Positions 780 to 33,499 of a stretch of DNA of 34,135 nt are shown here, piece after piece. Location: positions 1-34,135 of the forward strand of contig RKRY01000168.1 in assembly GCA_007571135.1 (NCBI GenBank). Direction: 5' to 3'. Position 1 is the first letter of the stretch. Each line of letters starts with the position of its first letter. The notes under the pieces were generated by a model, which saw nothing but the letters and a program-made list of their open reading frames with translations, ran no database searches and was not told where the DNA came from. This stretch comes from Candidatus Nitrosopumilus sp. GTDB taxonomy: Archaea > Thermoproteota > Nitrososphaeria > Nitrososphaerales > Nitrosopumilaceae. The translations under genes were made by a program, and so were the position numbers.

Positions 780-1395
780 AGCATCCTTTTGATCAACGAA
801 TTACTGGTTCCAAGGTTTGACAAATCTAGCAAGTTACACAACAAGCCCCGTAAGATCTTGGTCTGAAACCGGACAACAGGACCAATGGCAATACTCCCAA
901 TGCAAACATGCCTACAGGCGGCGTTCTTGCAGACGAGTCTCGGCTTATTCTACGTACCGAAAATTACTGCAATCTGATTCTGTGAACTGTCGTCTTTTGT
1001 TTTTGTTTTTGTTTTTGTTTTTGTTTTTGTTTTTGTTTCTGTCAGCAGATCTTCCACTGTGCCCAAAAGATCCCTTAGTATTAGAGAGTCACAGGTTCTG
1101 TCATCTGTAACTGTTACCTAGACTATTGCCTTTGTGTCCTTGTTTACAAGCAGGTGCAGCTTGACAAACCCGTGCCTTGTCTTCCATTTGTGTCGTATCC
1201 GTTTATTACGATAGCATTACTCAAGGCAGTAAAATCCGCAATCACTGTCATGTATTTGTTAGATCACTACCGGTCGCCACATGTTGCCGATGTCAATATC
1301 CAGCTTTTGAGCCCGCCTAAATGTGGGCATGGTCTGAAACGTCATGCCCTGCAACATTCCCTCAATAATTCCGGATAGTTGCATGTATGGAATCT
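780..1395 (-). pseudogene. Decayed IS5/IS4-superfamily DDE transposase remnant, multiple frameshifts/stops
   Basis: Minus-strand frames give LSGIIEGMLQGMTFQTMPTFRRAQKLDIDIGNMWR, then HKWKTRHGFVKLHLLVNKDTKAIV and VTVTDDRTCDSLILRDLLGTVEDLL, resembling the core of IS5-like transposases; interrupted by stops and frame changes. Boundaries approximate. Confidence 0.6.
995..1041. repeat. (TTTTTG)n hexanucleotide microsatellite, about 8 units
   Basis: G at 999, 1005, 1011, 1017, 1023, 1029, 1035 and 1041 separated by T-runs; encodes (TK)n in the minus-strand transposase-remnant frame. Confidence 0.95.
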
Positions 1396-15714: not shown

Positions 15715-16426
15715 AAAAATTGTTGAAGGCAACTGATTAAAATTTGTTGGGAAATAATTAGTCTGTTGTGTAACTCCTCCCCATACACACCCATGGCTTT
15801 GATGAGTGGTGGTGGTGGTGGTGGGTGGACACTGCCGTTGTATGCCATATCAGTTCCACCCTCCATGTGCTGTAATCAGATTGCAGGCGGCAACTTTTGA
15901 CATGATCTCATGCACCGTGTTCTCCCACATGATGCCATGACTGACTCGCCAAATATTTCCTTAAACGCAGAGAAGGCGGCCCACATCCAACGCTTGCCAA
16001 ACTTGGATCGCTCCTTCCATCTCTCTGATTCTCCTTCTTTTGCTAGTAAGCGTACCTATAGCTTTTAGGCGATCTGCCAGATGGTCGCGTACGGCTTCCC
16101 CATGATCACCCTTCCTCTGCCCTTTGCAACAGAAGTGATCTTCAATCGTATGGATGTATGGATGGTGCCACGGTTTTGCACTCCTTGTGTATGCCACATG
16201 TAGCGTACGCCGCATCTTCCATGACATGCGCTGTGACATAATTTATGGAAGGTGTGCCAATAGCAGATGCACGAACATCTTCGAGTCGCCTGCGGCATCG
16301 TCGGTAGCCTTGAGTACATGAATAATTCGTGTCCGTTAGACGAGTACTGCATCTTGACAAATCGGCTACCGGCCTTCCACTTTTGGCGTATCTGCTTGCC
16401 GTGGCTGTCTACCTTGATACTGTGCT

Positions 16427-16573
16427 GTCAACAGGTAATCGGTTAAGTCACATAAAGGAACTTGTAAAAAATGAGAGTTCATAGTTTGCATATTCTATAT
16501 TTTTCAATAACTTGCTAGATTTTGCATGATTAGTTGACGTTATCAAGCCTAACTTAACCGATTACGTCAACAG
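16427..16573. repeat. 8-bp target-site duplication GTCAACAG flanking MITE 1A
   Basis: GTCAACAG at 16427-16434 and 16566-16573, immediately abutting the element. Confidence 0.9.
16435..16565 (+). mobile_element. 131-bp MITE, family 1 copy A
   Basis: Ends GTAATCGGTTAAGTCA...TAACTTAACCGATTAC (14 bp perfect TIR); about 80-85% identical by eye to the reverse complement of 24730-24859; no ORF. Confidence 0.9.
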
Positions 16574-17099
16574 CATGAAAGCGTGTCTTGAACCGTCTTT
16601 GTCTGATACCGTAACCTTTTGTCGATCGTCTGTGCGCTGGGATCTTGGATCCTTCTGAGCATCATAGTATGCAGGCACATGCATATAGACATCATTCCAA
16701 GGGCCATGCCGGCAAGCTGCCCATACGGAATCTCATGTACTGGATTATTGCAATGTAGGCAGACAACAAGTTTGCGTATAGAAATGGTGCATCGTTCTTG
16801 CGTTAGTTTGCCTCCTTTGCTCCTATTCCATCAGGCCGTTCGTGTAACACGGACATTTGCCACGGTCAACGTATTTTGCGCTGTCAATACGAGCCAACGA
16901 CACGTCTTAGGACGCCGATCCAAATGCGCCTTGGATGGAAACCCCTGTCCTGATGGCAAAATTGCAGCAACCCGTCATTTCTAGGCAGGGTTGCGCACAT
17001 ATGTAAAATCCCCCGGCGTTTGCAGCCTGGCAATCCATCAATAGTCTAGAAATAATGATACTGCTAGAATTTTAAAAATAAGAAAAAAGAGAGAGTTCT

Positions 17100-17636
17100 T
17101 TAATCGTGTGCGTGTGGATTCTCAGAACCGGATTCCATCAAGACGTATGTACCATTTGCTTTTTCATGGTATTCAATGTATGACGGTTCAATCAAGATTG
17201 CTTTTTCTGGACACGCCTCTTGGCAAGCCATGCATTGCGTACAATCGTGTTCTCTTATTGGTTGTGATTTATCTGTGTAATCTAGACGTTCATCCTGTTC
17301 GGTTAAACCAGTACCGTCAAAGGTCTCATCCAAGCAAGATGATGCGGGGATGTCTTTTTCAGTTCTGTACCACTGGAAAGTCTGTACTGGGCAAACACTC
17401 ATGCACGAGCCTTGTGCTGTACAGTCGTCCCAGTCAACTGCGACAGTAGTACCATGAATTCCAAGTGGAACCTGTTCTTCACCACGTGCTTCATATGCTG
17501 CTTTTACATCATCATTTGAAAATGCTGCGCCGTCAGCTTTGCCTTTACCCCAGATAAAGTGCTTGTTTTCACCGTCACTGTGGTTTGTTTTTCCAGCAAT
17601 CTCTAGATTTTCGACAAATTTCTCATCTATTGGCAT
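17100..17636 (-). CDS. Two-cluster ferredoxin (Sulfolobus zinc-ferredoxin-like), paralog 1
   Basis: 178 aa; [24 protein letters not shown] and CTQCMACQEACPEKAI. Confidence 0.9.
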   Translation of the reverse strand: MPIDEKFVENLEIAGKTNHSDGENKHFIWGKGKADGAAFSNDDVKAAYEARGEEQVPLGIHGTTVAVDWDDCTAQGSCMSVCPVQTFQWYRTEKDIPASSCLDETFDGTGLTEQDERLDYTDKSQPIREHDCTQCMACQEACPEKAILIEPSYIEYHEKANGTYVLMESGSENPHAHD

Positions 17637-17654
17637 GTTGGGATTAATTTTAAG

Positions 17655-17674
17655 ATGTTATTTAAAGCTAGACA
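17655..17674 (-). promoter_or_regulatory. Shared ferredoxin promoter element, copy 1
   Basis: Minus strand TGTCTAGCTTTAAATAACAT with TATA-like TTTAAATA about 20-35 bp before the start. Confidence 0.65.
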
Positions 17675-17753
17675 AAATTAGTTGCAACTAAATCAAACAG
17701 ATCCCGATTTTTACGGTTGAATCCCAACAAATAAAGAAAAGAAAATAATTTTT

Positions 17754-18343
<590 letters not shown>

Positions 18344-18425
18344 GGTAAAACGCAAAATGCTATGGATCACTCAGGTAGGAATCTGATCCCTACGTTCATA
18401 ACGTTGGACGGACAATTCTGGGAAC

Positions 18426-19091
18426 ATGGACATTATCAAGTATGATGTGTATAGGGGACCGAATCTTGGCGTATATGTCAGGACTAACGATAGTGTGGTT
18501 TTGATTCCAATGGGGTTTGCCGAATCAAAGGCAAAAAAATTAGCTGAATACCTGGATGTAGACTATCATTATACCGCAATTGCAAATACCAGACTAATCG
18601 GTTCATTATCGGCAATGAACAACAAGGGGATGCTAATTCCTAGGACGGCTTTTGATAATGAGTATGAATTTTTAAAAAAAGAGACCAAACTGGAGATTGG
18701 CGTATTAGATTCTAAATTCACAGCTTTGGGAAACGTAATTTGTGCAAATGACAGGGGGGCCGTAGTCTCACCATGGTTATCAGATTCGGATTGCCAAGTA
18801 GTTTCAGATGTGTTGGGGGTTGAAGTTTTTCAGAAAAAAATTGCAGGCTTTAATCAAACAGGCGCAGTAATGGTTGCAAATAATTCAGGTGCTGTCATAC
18901 ACCCTGAGGCAGACGAAGAAGATATGAAGACGTTTGCAAATGTTTTAGGCGTGAAAGTTGAGCATAGTTCAGTTAACAATGGAGTTCCGTACGTGTCATC
19001 CGGGGTTTTAGCAAATAACAACAACCTGGTTGTGGGCTCACTTACAACCGGACCTGAAATAATGATGTTGACTAGGGCTTTTCTAAGCTAA
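18426..19091 (+). CDS. eif6: Translation initiation factor aIF6
   Basis: 221 aa; GPNLGVYVRTNDSVVLIP, NTRLIGSLSAMNNKGMLIP, GNVICANDRGAVVSPWL, MVANNSGAVIHPEADEED. Confidence 0.95.
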   Translation: MDIIKYDVYRGPNLGVYVRTNDSVVLIPMGFAESKAKKLAEYLDVDYHYTAIANTRLIGSLSAMNNKGMLIPRTAFDNEYEFLKKETKLEIGVLDSKFTALGNVICANDRGAVVSPWLSDSDCQVVSDVLGVEVFQKKIAGFNQTGAVMVANNSGAVIHPEADEEDMKTFANVLGVKVEHSSVNNGVPYVSSGVLANNNNLVVGSLTTGPEIMMLTRAFLS

Positions 19092-20355
19092 GAACAGAGT
19101 TTGGATCTTCTGTGAGTCGTTCTAGAGAAATAGTCACCTCCTTTCCATCTTTCATGTCACGCAGCACAACATTTCCATGTTCAACTTCGTTTGGACCCAC
19201 GATTATTGAATGCCGGGCGTTTGAAGCTGCATCCATTTGTTTTTTGACATTTCTTCCAGATAAATCAATGTCGGTTGGAATCCTATTGAGTCTTAACAGC
19301 GATGCAATAGAAAATGCAACTTTTTGCATTTCGTCATTGACATAAATTACCGCAATTCTATTTCGGTCTGATTCCGGAATGATGTTTTGTTCTTGCATTG
19401 TTAGAATGATTCTCTCAACTCCTCCTGCAACGCCTGTCGCACAAAGATCATCCCTGCCAAATGCTCTAGTTAGCGTGTCATATCTTCCACCACCCGCCAA
19501 TGCCCCCAGTTTAGAATTTTTATCAAATACCTCAAAGACCATTCCAGAATAATAGTCCAGTCCTCTTACAACTCCAAAATTAATTCTGATATTTGATATG
19601 CCTCTACTTTCAAGTGACGAGAACAGTGATTTTAATTTATTCCATGATTCTAGTTGTGACGTGTCAAGTGTATTTTCAACATCTTGAATTGTTCCTTTAA
19701 TTTGTGAGAAATCCAACATTTCTTCTAGTTTTGATTTATCATATCCTTTTGATTCAAATTCTTTGAGAATTTCCTCTTTGGGTTTTTTTGAAATTTTATC
19801 AACTGCTCTAAGAATATCTTCTACTAGCCGGGGGTCTTTAGAATCAAATGTTTTGTTAATGAAGGATTCGACTAGATTTCGATGGTTAATATCAATTGTA
19901 ATATTTTTGAGAAGCAGCGAATCAAAAAGTCTGGATGTCAATTCAATTATCTCTGCTTCTGATTCTATGGTTGGTTTGCCATAAACCTCTGCATCCCACT
20001 GGTGAAAGTATCTGTACCTTCCCTTTTGCGGTTCATCATAACGAAAAACACCGCCAAACGCAGAGATTTTTGCTGGAAGTTTCATGGATTTTTGGGATGT
20101 GGCATACCTTGTCAAACCCATTGTAAAATCAAAACGTAAGGCAACTTCCCTATTGCCTTTGTCTTTGAAATAATAGATTTCATCACGAATTGCGGCGCCG
20201 GACTTTGTTTCAAGTGTTGCCAGGGATTCTAAGACCGATGGTTCCATGAATGAAAATCCATACAGATTTGATAACTGCTTGAAATGATATCTGATGTGTT
20301 CAATACTTGCATTCTCTTGAGCCTCAAAATCCTTCATTCCCCTAGGCAATTCCAA
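19072..20355 (-). CDS. hisS: Histidyl-tRNA synthetase
   Basis: 427 aa; LPRGMKDF, ALRFDFTMGLTRY, FGGVFRYDEPQKGRYRYFHQWDAEVYG, GGGRYDTL. Confidence 0.95.
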   Translation of the reverse strand: MELPRGMKDFEAQENASIEHIRYHFKQLSNLYGFSFMEPSVLESLATLETKSGAAIRDEIYYFKDKGNREVALRFDFTMGLTRYATSQKSMKLPAKISAFGGVFRYDEPQKGRYRYFHQWDAEVYGKPTIESEAEIIELTSRLFDSLLLKNITIDINHRNLVESFINKTFDSKDPRLVEDILRAVDKISKKPKEEILKEFESKGYDKSKLEEMLDFSQIKGTIQDVENTLDTSQLESWNKLKSLFSSLESRGISNIRINFGVVRGLDYYSGMVFEVFDKNSKLGALAGGGRYDTLTRAFGRDDLCATGVAGGVERIILTMQEQNIIPESDRNRIAVIYVNDEMQKVAFSIASLLRLNRIPTDIDLSGRNVKKQMDAASNARHSIIVGPNEVEHGNVVLRDMKDGKEVTISLERLTEDPNSVLSLEKP

Positions 20356-20444
20356 TTTAATGTTTGATTAGGATCTGGAGATTTAAGCATTAGTGCCAGA
20401 ATTATTTTGGCATTGGAGATTTTTATACAGCGAAAATATCTCAG

Positions 20445-21161
20445 ATGTGTTTGTCAGGCGGAGTGTTACCTTCAGATGATTCAGATTTTAGCTTGCCTGG
20501 AAGGGAGCAAGACAGCAATGTTGGACTTTTCAAGCCCGAGTCTGAAGCTGAAGAAAGGCCAAAAAACAAAGGTATTGTAATTGCTGGATTAATTTTTGCA
20601 GTAGTTGCCGCAGGATCTTTTTCATATTATTTTGTAAATCAGGAAAGAATTGACTCGGAAATTCTAGATGGCATTACATTTACAATTGAAGAAAGGATGA
20701 TTGAAAAATATAACGTTGGACACTTTGGAAGTGATCATGCACATGCTGCGATGGTGATGCATATTAAATCAGAAAGCCTAAATTTTGGTTTGCCTGCATT
20801 TCAGCTTCAAAGTAAGTACATACATTTTGAGAACCACAACCCTTATCAGATTCACAAGCATGCAAACAGAGTTCCCTTAGAAATGCTCTTTGTATCGTTT
20901 GGAATGCAAGTTGATTCCGGATGTATACTATTTGGAGAAAATCAGCTGTGTCAGGACGAGGATAATTCATTGAGATTTTTTATTAATGGAGACGAGGTTG
21001 GAGGGATTTCAGAATATGAGATAATGCACGGAGATAGAATCCTGATATTTTACGGGGATGATAGGTTAGTATCCAAACAACTATCATATCTTGATTCACT
21101 TGAAATTCATGATATTCCTAAACGTGACAAAGTGAATCAGGACAAGGAGATCTTCGTCTGA
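20445..21161 (+). CDS. Single-TM anchored protein with His-rich extracytoplasmic domain, unknown function
   Basis: 238 aa; TM GIVIAGLIFAVVAAGSFSYYFV, then HFGSDHAHAAMVMHI and YIHFENHNPYQIHKHANRVP; TATA-like TTTTTATA upstream. Confidence 0.7.
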   Translation: MCLSGGVLPSDDSDFSLPGREQDSNVGLFKPESEAEERPKNKGIVIAGLIFAVVAAGSFSYYFVNQERIDSEILDGITFTIEERMIEKYNVGHFGSDHAHAAMVMHIKSESLNFGLPAFQLQSKYIHFENHNPYQIHKHANRVPLEMLFVSFGMQVDSGCILFGENQLCQDEDNSLRFFINGDEVGGISEYEIMHGDRILIFYGDDRLVSKQLSYLDSLEIHDIPKRDKVNQDKEIFV

Positions 21162-21554
21162 GGGCATCAGCAGACGGATCTGTAATTCCATTTATGATGT
21201 CCTGTCTTCATTCTGACATGTCTCCGCTGGATTCAAGCACGGCGATCCCGTCGACAGATAAACGATTCGGACGTTACCGCTTTTTCCGAGAAACCTTTCA
21301 AGCACTGTCCTGTGTCCCGTGGTACGGGATTGAGTCACATCCTTTGGACCATCAATCCGCCCGCATCTGGCAGTCGGCACGAATAAAACCGCATTGATTG
21401 TAGTTCTGTTGTCGGTTCTCAGTCTTTCAGCTAAAATGGTCCTGGCAAGCGCGTGGTTGTACGCCATTCCGTTACAGGATAGATGATTCTTTAAGTACGA
21501 AGCTATAATCAACGCTGTTACAAATGAGCACGACGGCCACCGAAATTTGTCCAA
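21160..21554 (-). pseudogene. IS630-family transposase remnant (frameshifted C-terminus)
   Basis: VLERFLGKSGNVRIVYLSTGSPCLNPAETCQNEDR then, in a shifted frame, DIINGITDPSADA; matches the typical IS630 pattern VyLPtGSPxLNxxE...DIINGIxxPSADA. Only the C-terminal portion is convincing. Confidence 0.6.
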
Positions 21555-21634
21555 ATGGTTGGCTTTGGGATCAGCTCCACAGTTCTGACGCGAACCAATA
21601 GTATTTTTATTAAAAACATCTAGAAAGATTTCAA

Positions 21635-22291
21635 TTGAATTCCATTACAACATTAAACAAGAAAATTAAAAATTGCAAAAAATGTCCCAGATTATCTGTT
21701 TACATTAGGGATGTGGCAAAAAACAAAGTCAGACGATTCAGAGATGAGAAATACTATGGAAGGCCATTATCAGGCTTTGGTGACATCAATGCAAAATTGC
21801 TAATTATAGGATTAGCGCCAGCTGCTCATGGAGGAAACAGAACAGGCAGAATGTTTACTGGTGACTCGTCTGGAGAGTGGCTAGCTAGAGCAATGCACAG
21901 GCATGGATTTGCATCGATTCCAACTAGTCAATCAAGAGATGACGGGTTGATCCTCAAAAACACATACATTACTGCGGCAGTTAGATGCGCGCCGCCCCAA
22001 AACAAACCAACAAAGGATGAAATTGACACATGCTTTCAGTATTTAGAGAAAGAAAAGGAGATTCTTTCGAAAGTAACTACAGTGCTTTGTTTGGGAAAAA
22101 TCGGGTATAACACAGCGTGCAAGTTGTTTGAGGTAAAACCAGAGAAATTTGGGCACAATAAATTGTTCAAATATGAAAAAATCCAAATTCTTACGTCCTA
22201 CCACCCTTCAAAACAAAATACCCAGACAGGAAGGCTGACCTGGCATCAATGGTCTTTAGTTTTTGCAAAAGCAAAAAGGCTGGCAAAGTAG
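21635..22291 (+). CDS. Uracil-DNA glycosylase, family 5 (UDGb)-like
   Basis: 218 aa; KNCKKCPRL, GLAPAAHGGNRTGRMFTGDSSG, TSYHPSKQNTQTGRLT. Confidence 0.9.
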   Translation: MNSITTLNKKIKNCKKCPRLSVYIRDVAKNKVRRFRDEKYYGRPLSGFGDINAKLLIIGLAPAAHGGNRTGRMFTGDSSGEWLARAMHRHGFASIPTSQSRDDGLILKNTYITAAVRCAPPQNKPTKDEIDTCFQYLEKEKEILSKVTTVLCLGKIGYNTACKLFEVKPEKFGHNKLFKYEKIQILTSYHPSKQNTQTGRLTWHQWSLVFAKAKRLAK

Positions 22292-23814
22292 CAAACCTTT
22301 ATTGTAAAACCATCCTCAAATTATTTGTGAAAGGGTTTCTAATTTTTTTCTTTATAGTTGCAGCCATCCCACCTGCATTTAGCGAAGAATTTCCAGATTT
22401 GGGTGTAAAAGTTGAAACAGTAGCAGATAATCTAACAATTCCATGGAGTATTGATTGGCTTCCTAATGGAGATGCCATATTCACTGAGAGAAACGGGGAT
22501 CTAAGAATCATACAAGATGGGGAATTGCAAGACGCCCCATTACTATCACTTAGCGTGGCAGGTGTGGAAGGGGGGATGCTAGGAGTTGCAGTTGATCCAT
22601 ACTATTCTGAAAATAATTTCATCTATCTTTACTACACATACAATGAATTCTTGTCCACGCAAAACAAGCTTGTAAGATATTATTTCAGTGATGATACGCT
22701 AACTGAAAGCAAAGTTCTAGTGGATGGAATTCCGGGCGGGCCATTTCATGATGGGGGAAGAATTCAATTTGGACCTGACGAAAAATTATACATTACAACA
22801 GGAGATGCTGGGGATCCAAACTTATCACAAGATCTTGATTCGCTTGCAGGGAAAATTCTAAGAGTTAATTCAGATGGAACGATTCCAGAAGACAACCCAT
22901 GGAAAGATTCGCCAATCTATTCAATAGGCCACAGAAATCCACAGGGGATTGATTGGGACATCAATGGAAATTTGATTGCAACTGAGCATGGACCATCCGG
23001 ATGGAGGGGTAACGCTCATGACGAGCTAAACCTCATTACCCCAGGCTCAAATTATGGATGGCCAGACGTAATTGGAGGCGAGACCAAGATAGGACTGCAG
23101 AATCCGATTTTGCATACGGGAGATGACACTTGGGCACCATCAGGTGGAGAATTTTACGAGTGGGATAAAATTCCTCAATGGACGGGAAAATATTTCGTTG
23201 CCACGCTGAGAGGAAGTCATCTTCACATGGTTGATTTTGATCTACGAAACAATAAGGTGATTTCAAGCGAAAAATTATTTCAAGATGATTTTGGAAGATT
23301 ACGGGATGTACAAACAGGTCCTGACGGATATCTCTACATTCTTACAAGTAACCAAGATGGAAGAGGATCTCCCAATTTAGGCGATGATAAAATCCTGAGA
23401 ATCATGCCATTAAATCCTGCTAATGATTGCAGTGTAACTACAGAAAGCCCAATTGCAGTAGATGCAATTCCAGAAATACAGAATGGAACCACAAAAATCA
23501 AGGTAAGTGGATGCGTTGATGATACTGCAAAATTTAAACTAATCAATTTGGAGATTTTTGATCCCAATGGGGAGTTTGTAACAGGCGGTGTAGTCACACA
23601 AGAGGATGGCAAGTTTGAAAGAACTTTTGAAGGGAAAGTTTCAGTAAATGGAACTTATTTAGTGGTAGCTGATGCAAATGGAGAGTTTGCAGTGACAAAT
23701 ACATTTGTTGTTCCAGAGTTTGGCCAGACTTTAGTGGTAATTTTGATAATCGGTGTTGCTGCAGGATTGATTGGATCAACTAAATTATTTCCAAATATTC
23801 AATTACCGAAATAA
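22249..23814 (+). CDS. PQQ-type sugar/sorbosone dehydrogenase with PEFG-like C-terminal anchor; true start probably downstream of 22291
   Basis: IPWSIDWLPNGDAIFTERNG, GPFHDGGRIQFGPDEKLYITTGDAGD, IYSIGHRNPQGIDWD; C-terminal VVPEFGQTLVVILIIGVAAGLIG. Confidence 0.9.
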   Translation: MVFSFCKSKKAGKVANLYCKTILKLFVKGFLIFFFIVAAIPPAFSEEFPDLGVKVETVADNLTIPWSIDWLPNGDAIFTERNGDLRIIQDGELQDAPLLSLSVAGVEGGMLGVAVDPYYSENNFIYLYYTYNEFLSTQNKLVRYYFSDDTLTESKVLVDGIPGGPFHDGGRIQFGPDEKLYITTGDAGDPNLSQDLDSLAGKILRVNSDGTIPEDNPWKDSPIYSIGHRNPQGIDWDINGNLIATEHGPSGWRGNAHDELNLITPGSNYGWPDVIGGETKIGLQNPILHTGDDTWAPSGGEFYEWDKIPQWTGKYFVATLRGSHLHMVDFDLRNNKVISSEKLFQDDFGRLRDVQTGPDGYLYILTSNQDGRGSPNLGDDKILRIMPLNPANDCSVTTESPIAVDAIPEIQNGTTKIKVSGCVDDTAKFKLINLEIFDPNGEFVTGGVVTQEDGKFERTFEGKVSVNGTYLVVADANGEFAVTNTFVVPEFGQTLVVILIIGVAAGLIGSTKLFPNIQLPK

Positions 23815-23815
23815 G

Positions 23816-24607
23816 ATGGAATATAAAATCGGATGTACGGGATGGAGTTATCAAGGTTGGTCTAGAACATTTTACCCAAAAAATCTCAAGAGTTCAGAGT
23901 GGTTAGGATACTATTCAAAGATTTTCGATATTACTGAAATCAACTCAACATTTTACAGAATTCCATCACAGGAGGTTGTACGAAGATGGAATGCAGATAC
24001 CCCCAGACATTTCCGATTTTCAGCCAAATTTCCATCAATAATTACACATGAAAAGAGGCTAGAAAATGTAAATTCTGAGATTTTTTCATTTTTGTCGTCT
24101 CTAGCACCAATCCATGAAAAAATTTCAGCCCTGGTTTTACAATTGCCTCCTTCGTTGTCGTTTGGTGAGTCAAAATCAAAACTAGATGGAATATTTGAAA
24201 TACTGCCAGATGATTTTCTCTATCCAATTGAAGGAAGACACGAATCGTGGTTTTCTGAAGAGGCAATCTCATTTTTAAAACAGAAAAATCATTGTCTAGT
24301 GTGGAGCGATATTGAAGGAGTAACAAACTCTATGCCAATTACATCAAACTATCTTTATATCAGATTAATCGGGGGCAGAATAATCCCGGATTCAGAATTT
24401 GGACAGATAGCGATTGACAAAAAAGAGCAAATCAAAAGATGGGCCAGAAAACTAGAAAGTATCTCCGATGTGCCACTTGCAATGGTTATGACAAACAATC
24501 ACTATGAGGGATTTGGTCCTGTAACTGCAAACTCTTTGAGAAAGAATCTTGGAATGAAAGAATTAATCTGGGAAGAAAAAAGGCAAAAAACTTTGCAAAG
24601 TTTCTAG
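23816..24607 (+). CDS. DUF72 family protein
   Basis: MEYKIGCTGWSYQGWSRTFYPKNLKSSEWLGYYSKIFDITEINSTFYRIP, LVLQLPPSLSF, EGRHESWFS. Confidence 0.9.
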   Translation: MEYKIGCTGWSYQGWSRTFYPKNLKSSEWLGYYSKIFDITEINSTFYRIPSQEVVRRWNADTPRHFRFSAKFPSIITHEKRLENVNSEIFSFLSSLAPIHEKISALVLQLPPSLSFGESKSKLDGIFEILPDDFLYPIEGRHESWFSEEAISFLKQKNHCLVWSDIEGVTNSMPITSNYLYIRLIGGRIIPDSEFGQIAIDKKEQIKRWARKLESISDVPLAMVMTNNHYEGFGPVTANSLRKNLGMKELIWEEKRQKTLQSF

Positions 24608-24721
24608 AGACATAGATTCTTCAATGGAAATGAGCACCGATCCTGCAAGCCGGTCAGCCAAACAAAAAGGCGATCAGGACATGCGTATGTGTATGTTGTC
24701 AATATTTAAGGCAAGGCAGTA

Positions 24722-24867
24722 GTTTTACTGTAATCGGTTAAGTCAGCTTTGACAATTTCAACAAATTATGCAAGATTTATCAAATTATTGAAAAATATAC
24801 AGTATGTAAGCTATGAACTCACATTTTTTAGAAGTTCCTTTATGTGACTAACCGATTATGTTTTACT
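24722..24867. repeat. 8-bp target-site duplication GTTTTACT flanking MITE 1B
   Basis: GTTTTACT at 24722-24729 and 24860-24867, immediately abutting the element. Confidence 0.9.
24730..24859 (-). mobile_element. 130-bp MITE, family 1 copy B (inverted relative to copy A)
   Basis: Reverse complement aligns end-to-end with 16435-16565; TIR GTAATCGGTTAAGT / (A)TAATCGGTTAGT. Confidence 0.9.
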
Positions 24868-25392
24868 AGCTGCAAGACCAATAGATTCGCCAAAATAATA
24901 TCCGGCAAGAATTGTTCCTGTGGCCCAAATTAAAGAACCTGCAAATGTGTATAAAACAAATTTTGAAACTCTCATTTTTAACAATCCTGCAGGAATTGAA
25001 ATCATTTCCCTCATTACAGGAACCATCCTTCCTAGAAATACTGCCTTCTCACCGTACTTTGCAAACCAAATCTCAACACGTTCTAATTTTGATTCATGGA
25101 CCTTGACATATTTTAGATAGCGCAACAAAACAACCCTTCCAAGCTTTAGAGCAATCAAGTAAATTGCCGAAGTTCCAATGGTTGCGCCTATTGCTCCAAA
25201 AAGTATCATTGGGACAACACCGATCAGAGGAATTCCTTGTTGGTTGGCCAAGAATCCTGCAGTTGGAAAAACTGCTAATGTTGGTATAGGAGGAACGATG
25301 GTTTCAAGAAGGGCTGCAAGAAAGATCCCCTCATAAAGATGATTTCCTAGAAAATCAGAGATCCTTACTAAAAACGAGTCAAACGGTTCCAT
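24856..25392 (-). CDS. DedA/SNARE-associated family membrane protein; stop codon provided by MITE 1B
   Basis: 178 aa; GIFLAALLETIVPPIPTLAVFPTAGFLA, FGAIGATIGTSAIYLIALKLG, FLGRMVPVMREMISIPAGLLKM. Confidence 0.9.
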   Translation of the reverse strand: MEPFDSFLVRISDFLGNHLYEGIFLAALLETIVPPIPTLAVFPTAGFLANQQGIPLIGVVPMILFGAIGATIGTSAIYLIALKLGRVVLLRYLKYVKVHESKLERVEIWFAKYGEKAVFLGRMVPVMREMISIPAGLLKMRVSKFVLYTFAGSLIWATGTILAGYYFGESIGLAASKT

Positions 25393-30805: not shown

Positions 30806-33499
30806 TTACCAAAACTGCCACCATGGTTTTTGAACTGGCTTTGGGAAAATCGTGCAAACTCCATCAATTAGTTTGGTTCCTGGTCCGCAAAATCCAAATT
30901 TCTTTTCTGGTTCAGATTTCTTTGGCTCTAGCGTTTCCACTTTATGGTACTCTTCTGATGGTTCTTCTAATCCTACTGCCTGATAAATTGAATCATACTC
31001 TGAGTAATTATCATCAAACCAACCTTTGTAGCTTGCTTCATTGTTGTATCTGTCAACATAACTTTGTGGGTCCTTTGTTTCATCAACAAATGGTGCTAAT
31101 CCTAATTCTTCTTGTTCTTGGATAGGCTCCGGTTCTTGGATAGGCTCCGGTTCTTGGATAGGCTCCGGTTCTTGGATAGGCTCCGGTTCTTGGATAGGCT
31201 CCGGTTCTTGGATAGAGTTGTTTACAGTAATTGTAAGTGGCGTTGAGTCAAACAATCCATCTTTTTTTACTTCTACATCAAAGGTGTAGGTTTTTCCACC
31301 ATCAGTACTCGTTGGAGCCCATGTGAACATCCCGGTATTTGAAATAATTTTTGTGCCTGTAGGCGCGTTTCTTAGGCTAAAAACATGGTCTTTGATTGTG
31401 CTATCTGTTAATTTTACAGTAAATGACAATAATTTTCCTTCATCGACTGATAATTTCCCAACGGGGCTAATCTCCAATCCTGTAATTTTTGGAGTAGCGG
31501 TTGATTCATTTGACGGTTCGCTTGTTCCCGCTACATTAATTGCTGAAATTCTGTAGGTATATTTTGAATCCGTTACAAGGCCTGAATGAGTATAAATTCT
31601 TGATGTACTCTGGGTGTTCTCCACTATTGTACTAAAGGGACCATTGTTTTTTTTAGATTCAATTTTATAACCAACAACATCTGAATTTCCATCATCCACT
31701 GGTTCGCCCCATGTAAGCTTGATAGATTTTACAGATTCGGTTTCTGCGCGCAGTTTTATTGGAGGTGAAGACACCGTTACTTTAACTTCAGTTGAAGTTA
31801 TCGGCTCTTCTGATGTATCTGTAGAACTTTCTCTAGGTGTAGCAGATGCAGTGTTTGATTCTTCAGTTACGCCGAATCCAATGTTTGCTGCAACTGCATA
31901 AGTGTAAATATTGTCAATTGCCAAATTTGAAACAATAAATGTGGTAGTCTGTCCATTTGTATTTCCAACAATATCATAAACATCATCGCCTATTTTCCGT
32001 TTGATTTCATATCCGCTAATTGATTGACCAAATGTTTGAGATGGAGGTATCCATGACAACTTGATTTGACTGGGAGAAATTGCAGTCGCAGTAAGTGCAA
32101 CAGGTGTTGTAGTATGTTTTGGTTTTTCTGAAACCGATGGCGATGCGTCACTTGTCCCTTCAGAGTTTATTGAATAAACGCGATAATAGTATGTTTCAGT
32201 TTCCTCCAATCCATGATGAATAAACGAGGTGGTTTTGCTTGCAGAATTTTCTATTATTGTAGTGTAATCTTCAGAGCCAACTTTATACTCAATTTTATAT
32301 CCAGTAATTTCCGGAACAGATTCATCTAGTTTAGATTCATCCCAAGTAAGAATTATTGATGTTGGGGAGATCGCCATTGCTTTGAGATTTTCAGGTCTGC
32401 CAGGCGTCATCACAACAGGATCTGAACGAAGTGCCAAAGCCTGGATTCTATCATTTCCTGAATCTGCCACAAATAGCAGATCATTTGTCGAGTCTAATGA
32501 TATTCCTATTGGAGTATTAAACTGGCCATTCTTAGAACCAAAAGTTCCAAATTCTTCAACAAAACACACTCCGTCTGCAATCTCTTGTGCCCCACTTGGA
32601 CATAAAGTGTCATCTATGATCTCGAAGACTTGAATTCGATCATTGTCTGAATCTGCAATGTATAGTAAATCATTTGCATCATCAAATGCCAATCCAGCAG
32701 GATTGTCAAATTGTCCGTCCCCATCACCTGAAGAACCAAATTCCTTTACAAAACAAATACCATCAACTGATTTGACTGTGGCCCCTGGACATAAAGTTCC
32801 AGTTACAAGTTCAAACATAACAATTCTATCATTTCCAGAATCAGTAACAAAGAGAATATCATTGGAATTGTCAATTATCATGCTCGATGGATTTTTGAAT
32901 TTATCATTTCCATCAAAAGAATCAAAATCAAACTTAAAATTCCCTGCTGAGTTAAAAACTGAAATTGAATCTCTTTTTGAATTTGAGACAAAGATGTCTC
33001 TAGTTCTATCTTGAATTACTACTCCCTCTACACCTCCAAGGTATTCGTTATTTTTATTATCTGATGAACCAAATTTGAATCGAAATTTTCCGTTATCATT
33101 AAAAACTTGAATTCTTTCATTGTCTCCATCTACAACAAAATATTTTCCAAAAGCACCAAGAGCTATACTGGACGGATTGTCAAATTGTCCGTCCCCATCA
33201 TTGCTTGCTCCATCTGCATCATCATTGCAATTTTGAATTTGTGCTATGTCACAAAAAGATCCGTATTCAAAATCATGATCTCCATCATCGTCAAATACAT
33301 TTATTCTGTTGTTATCTTTGTCAACAACGTGAATTTCTTTTCCGTCACTACTAACTATGACATCAGTAGGATTGTCTAACTGATCGTCATTGGTTCCGAA
33401 TTCTCCAAACTTGAAATAAAACTCCATTTCTGCATAGGCCAATGGAATTGATACAATACACATTACAAAAAATATGCTCAAAATGATATTTCTCGCCAA
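30806..33499 (-). CDS. Secreted multidomain protein: NHL propeller, FN3 repeats, Ig-like domain, QEPEPI linker, C-terminal VDRYNNE module
   Basis: 897 aa with signal peptide (MARNIILSIFFVMCIVSIPLAYAE); repeated DGDGQFDNPxxIA...NDRIQVF; FN3-like blocks; VDRYNNEASYKGWFDDNYSEYDSIYQAVGLEEP. Confidence 0.9.
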   Translation of the reverse strand: MARNIILSIFFVMCIVSIPLAYAEMEFYFKFGEFGTNDDQLDNPTDVIVSSDGKEIHVVDKDNNRINVFDDDGDHDFEYGSFCDIAQIQNCNDDADGASNDGDGQFDNPSSIALGAFGKYFVVDGDNERIQVFNDNGKFRFKFGSSDNKNNEYLGGVEGVVIQDRTRDIFVSNSKRDSISVFNSAGNFKFDFDSFDGNDKFKNPSSMIIDNSNDILFVTDSGNDRIVMFELVTGTLCPGATVKSVDGICFVKEFGSSGDGDGQFDNPAGLAFDDANDLLYIADSDNDRIQVFEIIDDTLCPSGAQEIADGVCFVEEFGTFGSKNGQFNTPIGISLDSTNDLLFVADSGNDRIQALALRSDPVVMTPGRPENLKAMAISPTSIILTWDESKLDESVPEITGYKIEYKVGSEDYTTIIENSASKTTSFIHHGLEETETYYYRVYSINSEGTSDASPSVSEKPKHTTTPVALTATAISPSQIKLSWIPPSQTFGQSISGYEIKRKIGDDVYDIVGNTNGQTTTFIVSNLAIDNIYTYAVAANIGFGVTEESNTASATPRESSTDTSEEPITSTEVKVTVSSPPIKLRAETESVKSIKLTWGEPVDDGNSDVVGYKIESKKNNGPFSTIVENTQSTSRIYTHSGLVTDSKYTYRISAINVAGTSEPSNESTATPKITGLEISPVGKLSVDEGKLLSFTVKLTDSTIKDHVFSLRNAPTGTKIISNTGMFTWAPTSTDGGKTYTFDVEVKKDGLFDSTPLTITVNNSIQEPEPIQEPEPIQEPEPIQEPEPIQEPEPIQEQEELGLAPFVDETKDPQSYVDRYNNEASYKGWFDDNYSEYDSIYQAVGLEEPSEEYHKVETLEPKKSEPEKKFGFCGPGTKLIDGVCTIFPKPVQKPWWQFW
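31121..31210 (-). repeat. 18-bp tandem repeat x5 encoding QEPEPI
   Basis: GATAGGCTCCGGTTCTTG repeated from 31121, 31139, 31157, 31175 and 31193. Confidence 0.95.

What the first reader, a model, noticed from the sequence alone, without database searches (positions are those of the whole stretch)
16427..24867. A non-autonomous MITE family with 8-bp target duplications and GTAA termini
Two unannotated about 130-bp elements (16435-16565 and 24730-24859, opposite orientation) align end-to-end at about 80-85% by eye. They share TIR GTAATCGGTTAAGT and each is flanked by its own perfect 8-bp duplication (GTCAACAG; GTTTTACT), so both are genuine transposition events. TIRs starting 5'-GTAA plus 8-bp TSDs are described for the IS66 family; deriving these MITEs from an IS66-like or other 8-bp-TSD element is inference. 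No matching transposase is visible here.
Basis: partly seen in the sequence, partly recalled or inferred. Interest (0 to 1): 0.75.

Follow-up and report, generated by a model that had tools for sequence, protein, structure and literature searches.

The report
IS66-driven mini-transposon burst in archaeon
The two 131-base repeats are real copies of a tiny parasitic DNA element that has spread to well over a hundred sites in this one ammonia-oxidiser-like archaeon, apparently by borrowing the enzyme of an IS66-type jumping gene, and about half of the copies now sit where neighbouring DNA seems to have been lost.

Summary
Both elements (16435-16565; 24730-24859, inverted) are 85% identical and flanked by perfect 8-bp duplications; the nearest congener has the orthologous empty site for the second copy, with a single 8-mer. 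The family is large: 95 full-length plus 19 partial copies recovered from this 1.47-Mb assembly (I estimate 120-140), 80 of the 95 exactly 131 bp, in recombining subtypes. None of 249 other genomes of the family has the TIR, and a scan of ~85,000 species genomes found no element with both exact tips. The IS66 inference is now supported: the same TIR caps an IS66 element in this genome (left end GTAATCGGTTAAGTCAC, IS66 transposase C-terminus, right end GTACCCGGTTAAGTC), and related archaeal IS66 elements have GTA-type tips and perfect 8-bp duplications. No complete IS66 is in the assembly, but eight contigs stop 98-99 bp inside its ends, suggesting dropped near-identical copies. Unexpectedly, about half of the copies lack matching duplications. 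At the five of these that can be tested, the flanks are collinear elsewhere but 0.3-2.4 kb apart, so these copies seem to mark deletions, probably from recombination between copies; assembly error is not excluded. Known kind, new family.

The parts
16435..16565 (+). MITE copy 1, subtype A, 131 bp, 14-bp perfect TIR (16435-16448 / 16552-16565)
   Evidence: about 40 near-full-length relatives in the own genome in one search
16427..16434 (.). left target duplication GTCAACAG
16566..16573 (.). right target duplication GTCAACAG
24730..24859 (-). MITE copy 2, mosaic subtype AB (A-like left part, B-like right part), 130 bp; tip at 24859 mutated G->A and one A lost in that TIR
   Evidence: second set of about 40 relatives
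24722..24729 (.). target duplication GTTTTACT; single copy ATTTAACT at the orthologous empty site of G139
24860..24867 (.). target duplication GTTTTACT
16240..16700 (-). degenerate transposase-like relic (IS5-like by eye) that hosts MITE copy 1; a second fragment of it lies near 1155-1204
   Evidence: (repeat D4); no Pfam/NCBIfam hit, so the family is not established; limits approximate
24856..25392 (-). VTT/DedA-domain membrane protein gene; its present stop codon lies in the tip of MITE copy 2

Best explanation
The two elements are members of a ~131-bp MITE family that was mobilised in trans by the transposase of an IS66 insertion sequence (probably single-ORF, ISBst12-like) resident in the same archaeon. 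The transposase recognises the shared ~15-17 bp terminal repeat GTAATCGGTTAAGTC(A/G)C, joins the element to staggered target DNA and leaves 8-bp duplications (footprints and empty sites are shown; the enzyme's action is inferred). The family expanded to about 120-140 copies in this lineage only, with recombination between subtypes. About half of the copies have since lost matching duplications, in all testable cases together with 0.3-2.4 kb of neighbouring DNA, most simply by homologous recombination between two nearby copies (inferred; the 0.9 below is for the IS66-mobilised MITE, the recombination step alone I put at about 0.5).
For: Copies: about 40 + 40 near-full-length hits; 95 full-length plus 19 partial distinct copies, 80 of exactly 131 bp. 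TSDs: 45/93 with <=1 mismatch vs 0.6 by shuffling. Empty sites: 10/45 TSD+ copies have junction-spanning paralogues; for instance a B-type copy interrupts the IS66 gene itself (TSD CTGCGGCC) while sibling IS66 copies and a congener's IS66 run through without a gap. Orthologous empty sites in G139 for the window copy and four other TSD+ copies (L105; L023, L044, L103). Donor: PF03050 fragments in the own genome. The TIR is followed by a coiled-coil-like N-terminus and, in L128 and L083, by the right end GTACCCGGTTAAGTC with IS66 C-terminal coding sequence before it; Pfam PF03050 above its cut-off, NF033517 E=5e-16 on a partial protein. Related IS66 elements have GTAA/GTAT tips and perfect 8-bp TSDs. 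Eight contigs end 98-99 bp inside the IS66 ends, five right and three left, as expected for near-identical multicopy elements lost in assembly. Deletions: five TSD-less sites have collinear flanks with 0.3-2.4 kb between them elsewhere, while all eight TSD+ sites with a clean comparison have a gap of 0 or -2 bp.
Against: No complete IS66 transposase gene is in the assembly; only C-terminal PF03050 fragments and N-terminal pieces were seen, so the donor's catalytic core was never observed. The MITEs share only the TIR with the IS66, not internal sequence. No IS66 copy in this genome with its own TSD was found. Matches between left and right 8-mers of different TSD-less copies are rare (4 of 3074 comparisons at <=1 mismatch), so reciprocal (inversion-type) recombination is not visible. 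Mosaic copies are not clearly commoner among TSD-less copies (15/44 vs 11/45). The assembly is a 175-contig draft in which contigs <3 kb may be absent, so some 'deletions' could be mis-joins.
Confidence: 0.9

Rival explanations
1. The MITEs are moved by a different 8-bp-TSD transposase and share the TIR with the IS66 only by convergence or because both were once ends of one composite element.
For: Internal sequences of MITE and IS66 ends are unrelated beyond ~17 bp; many other decayed IS families are in the genome.
Against: A 15-17 bp match including the GTAA tip and the subterminal AAGTC(A/G)C; the 8-bp TSD and GTA-type tip are seen also in related archaeal IS66. Not every transposase family was searched.
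Confidence: 0.06
2. TSD-less copies come from abortive or one-sided transposition (adjacent deletions made by the transposase), not from recombination between MITE copies.
For: Deletion joints can abut the element: 0 and 0 bp (L101), 3 and 0 (L037), 9 and 0 (L052), which this model also predicts; cross-matches of 8-mers between copies are nearly absent.
Against: Pairs of copies within 0.2-1.7 kb are common in the genome, giving ample substrate for recombination; mosaic subtypes AB/BA suggest that copies do exchange sequence. Deletion by recombination also predicts no reciprocal product.
Confidence: 0.25
3. TSD-less copies are mis-assemblies: the assembler joined the left flank of one copy to the right flank of another.
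For: Fragmented draft with many contigs ending inside MITEs or IS66 ends; segments <3 kb could have been dropped.
Against: At the C161 and C135 sites the joined flanks are close neighbours in the same order in four relatives, so the joints are not random; swapped 8-mers are not found on other copies. The missing segments at these two sites (one searched by DNA, one by a single protein) are not on any held contig, which does not rule out a dropped short contig.
Confidence: 0.25
4. Not mobile elements but functional intergenic repeats (RNA or terminator-like) spread by other means.
For: Both strands of both copies fold more stably than shuffles (z -2.1 to -3.9).
Against: The fold is mainly the TIR stem; 8-bp TSDs, paralogous and orthologous empty sites, insertions inside transposase genes; no Rfam family.
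Confidence: 0.02

Closest known systems
IS66 family, ISBst12-type single-ORF members (e.g. ISDge4, PMC12898284: TIR GTGACTACTCAGCA/GTAACTGCTCAGCA, direct repeat CCTCGATG)
   Same: GTAA-type tips and 8-bp TSD; the resident IS66 here carries the same TIR as the MITE and has an IS66 transposase C-terminus
   Different: The MITE has no gene and no internal similarity; the resident IS66 was seen only as ends and fragments, so its single-ORF state is inferred
Sulfolobus MITEs SM1-SM4 (25-44 copies per family, cited in PMC10969869)
   Same: short non-autonomous archaeal elements in many copies per genome, several families or subtypes in one genome
   Different: Different IS drivers (my knowledge); here at least 114 copies of one family, IS66-linked, in a Nitrosopumilaceae-like archaeon
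Bacterial high-copy MITEs (Correia elements, ERIC; PMC10969869)
   Same: short, more than 100 copies in some genomes, inverted repeats
   Different: No Rfam or sequence link found here; 8-bp TSD with GTAA tips

Membership tests
MITE (non-autonomous DNA transposon) | short, no transposase ORF, terminal inverted repeats | tested here: met
   127-132 bp in 95 copies, 14-16 bp TIR
MITE (non-autonomous DNA transposon) | target-site duplications and empty sites | tested here: met
   45/93 with <=1 mismatch; empty sites
MITE (non-autonomous DNA transposon) | multiple dispersed copies | tested here: met
   at least 114 distinct copies
MITE mobilised by IS66 | TIR shared with an IS66 element | tested here: met
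   left end GTAATCGGTTAAGTCAC.. and right end GTACCCGGTTAAGTC.. of the resident IS66
MITE mobilised by IS66 | 8-bp TSD and GTAA-type tips as in IS66 | tested here: met
   MITE TSDs; IS66 elements L132 and L133 (GTAA) and L143 (GTAT) with perfect 8-bp TSDs
MITE mobilised by IS66 | intact IS66 transposase in the genome | tested here: inconclusive
   only C-terminal fragments of PF03050; contigs break 98-99 bp inside IS66 ends
MITE mobilised by IS66 | transposase acts on the MITE ends | not testable with these tools
   needs an experiment
IS66 family member (the resident donor) | DDE_Tnp_IS66 domain | tested here: met
   PF03050 35.1 bits vs cut-off 23.1, C-terminal part of the profile only
IS66 family member (the resident donor) | full catalytic core; single ORF (ISBst12 group) | tested here: inconclusive
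   interior not assembled; N-terminal pieces only

The most novel reading that the evidence does not exclude
A species-specific MITE burst driven by an IS66 element has been reshaping a small archaeal genome: recombination between the dispersed 131-bp copies deletes 0.3-2.4 kb blocks, leaving a single TSD-less MITE as a readable scar, so that missing target duplications can be used as a map of past deletions.
Probability: 0.5. Interest if true: 0.6.

Novelty: new member of a known kind. Interest (0 to 1): 0.45.

Why it matters
MITEs are little described in archaea (PMC10969869). A search of the open-access library for MITEs with Thaumarchaeota returned one paper, on a bacterium, and one for ammonia-oxidising archaea a general synthetic-biology review. 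This family gives a large set of insertions in one archaeal species, ties it to an IS66-type transposase, and offers a test of whether tiny repeats drive gene loss: copies with duplications mark insertions, copies without them appear to mark deletions. It would also help to explain why the draft genome breaks into 175 pieces.

Tried and rejected
(1) A 1.4-kb inverted TIR pair at C97:1692-3105 looked like an autonomous element but is two separate MITEs either side of an ordinary gene. (2) TSD-less copies as products of reciprocal exchange: left and right 8-mers of different copies do not cross-match beyond a CCTAGGAC trio and two near-matches. (3) TSD-less copies as more mosaic or more diverged: not so. 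(4) L130, an apparent full IS66 in a congener, looks like bacterial contamination (high GC by eye); not used. (5) Source of the family in other genomes or viruses: no exact-tip element in ~85,000 species genomes or IMG/VR; a protein search for the IS66 C-terminus in genome contigs gave one weak partial hit. (6) RNA family: none. (7) Flank searches in relatives for other TSD-less sites (L077, L047, L079, L028, L071, L095, L113, L015) found at most one orthologous flank and are uninformative. The hand-entered query carried about 100 unintended bases after the third site; the C161 and C135 results lie before that point and were redone on fetched sequence.

Full report
OBSERVATION. The two elements, their 8-bp repeats and their 85% identity are as described. 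The second copy has a damaged tip (ATAATCGGTTA-GT), so the 14-mer TIR is perfect at three of four ends.

SIZE OF THE FAMILY. The 131-mer finds about 40 near-full-length relatives in the own genome and the second copy about another 40 with little overlap, each search scoring only 40 of ~172 candidates. The exact tip GTAATCGGTTA occurs 125 times, the reversed control never. From fetched stretches I recovered 95 copies with both tips (80 of exactly 131 bp, range 127-132) and 19 partial ones, mostly cut by contig ends. Only 44% of tips in this set are exact, and about 20 of the 125 exact tips belong to the IS66 element or to other sequence, so I estimate 120-140 copies, about 1% of the genome (estimate). 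Copies differ by 14% on average, the nearest neighbour of a copy typically by 4.6%, never less than 2.3%. Sixteen diagnostic sites define subtypes A and B, and mosaics AB and BA; all four classes have members with intact TSDs. The window copies are A and AB.

TRANSPOSITION IS REAL. Of 93 copies with both flanking 8-mers, 30 have identical and 45 nearly identical 8-mers; shuffled pairing gives 0.3 and 0.6. Ten of the 45 TSD+ copies have a junction-spanning paralogue in held sequence, mostly because they sit inside other repeated insertion sequences. The window copy at 24730 has an orthologous empty site in the nearest congener, G139: both flanks align without a gap and the 8-mer is present once (ATTTAACT). 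Four further TSD+ copies are likewise contiguous in G139.

RESTRICTION. None of 249 other genomes of the archaeal family, 94 of them congeners, contains GTAATCGGTTAAGT. A scan of one genome each for ~85,000 species and a scan of viral contigs found no element with both exact tips (the own genome is left out there). The burst is confined to this species or a close group not sampled.

THE DONOR. PF03050 (IS66 transposase) finds four fragments in the own genome. Seventeen tips are not MITE ends but lead into GTAATCGGTTAAGTCACGCACAATGTCATACAATTTTGATCC... followed by an ORF start MENLDIEALRDENAMMISEIRKKDRIIDEQREQ.... In L128 and L083 this left end is followed in the same relic by a right end reading, inverted, GTACCCGGTTAAGTCGCCACG (in L128 GTACCCGATTAAGTCGCCACG), in L128 with the IS66 C-terminal coding region before it. 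The C-terminal piece is IS66 by Pfam (35.1 bits, cut-off 23.1) and NCBIfam NF033517 (E=5e-16, partial). MITE ends and IS66 ends agree over 15-17 bp and then diverge. Three independent IS66 elements of the same archaeal family, used as a yardstick, show GTAATAGC.., GTAACTGT.. and GTATATGG.. tips with perfect 8-bp TSDs. Fifteen right-end matches exist; five contigs (C84, C90, C108, C134, C153) stop 98-99 bp inside a near-identical right end and three (C16, C47, C52) stop 98-99 bp inside the left end. I read this as collapsed, recent full-length copies whose interiors were dropped. So the claim 'IS66-mobilised' rests on TIR, TSD length and co-residence; the catalytic core of the donor was not seen.

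COPIES WITHOUT DUPLICATIONS. The mismatch distribution between flanking 8-mers is bimodal (45 with 0-1, 4 with 2, 44 with 3-8), so slow decay is not the cause. TSD+ sites with a clean comparison sequence show a gap of 0 or -2 bp (8 sites). No TSD-less site does, apart from a tandem pair in L025. Five TSD-less sites have collinear flanks elsewhere with extra DNA between them. At C161:3779, four relatives have 0.3, 2.2, 2.2 and 2.4 kb between a rhodanese-like gene and a V-ATPase subunit I gene, encoding a histidine-kinase-like protein and another protein in G089, or a short lysine/arginine-rich protein in G139. At C135:22056, G139 and G138 keep about 1.9 kb with four genes (CBS-domain, two regulator-like, cupredoxin-like; names by eye), and G089 keeps 0.5 kb. 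At three sites inside IS relics (L037, L101, L052) the missing 0.37-0.82 kb is bounded by the MITE to within 0-9 bp. The C135 interior (by DNA) and one of the C161 proteins are not found elsewhere in the assembly (the tool notes that an empty answer alone proves little). The simplest reading is recombination between two same-orientation copies with loss of the DNA between; transposase-made adjacent deletions and mis-assembly remain open.

EFFECT ON GENES. Copy 1 lies in a decayed transposase relic. Copy 2 lies between the 3' ends of two convergent genes; the stop codon of the VTT/DedA-domain gene is now inside the element tip. Both strands fold with the TIR as a stem (z -2.1 to -3.9); no Rfam family matches. 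I see no evidence for a host function.

KNOWN VERSUS NEW. MITEs, IS66 elements and recombination between MITEs are known kinds (PMC10969869, PMC12898284). The review cites 25-44 copies per Sulfolobus family and does not contain the string IS66. This is therefore a new, large, IS66-linked MITE family in an archaeal group for which I found no earlier report in the open-access library; subscription literature and ISfinder were not searched.

Noticed in passing
window 1155-1204 and 16348-16397: 72%-identical dispersed fragments that look like two relics of one IS5-like transposase gene (KWKxxxxFVKxx motif); no family hit.
   Followed up: partly
L024, L056, L065, L069, L112 (own genome): Other decayed elements bounded by CGTAGTG...CACTACG, some only ~100 bp long: possibly a second small-element family of a different IS in the same genome.
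   Followed up: no
L188 (G139) versus L189, L190, L191 (G089, G138, G150): The gene block between the rhodanese-like and V-ATPase subunit I genes differs among congeners (0.3 kb versus 2.2-2.4 kb), so the site is variable even without MITEs.
   Followed up: partly
window 17100-17636 and 17754-18308 (-): Two adjacent ferredoxin-like paralogues about 70% identical in part of their DNA.
   Followed up: no
window 31096-31233: 18-bp tandem repeat (EPIQEP in the protein) inside the large ORF 30806-33499.
   Followed up: no
L025 (C156) around 1501-1764: Two MITEs in tandem separated by 2 bp, with a third partial copy just downstream.
   Followed up: no
L130 (G156:C179): IS66 on a contig in a congener bin that looks like bacterial contamination of that bin.
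   Followed up: no
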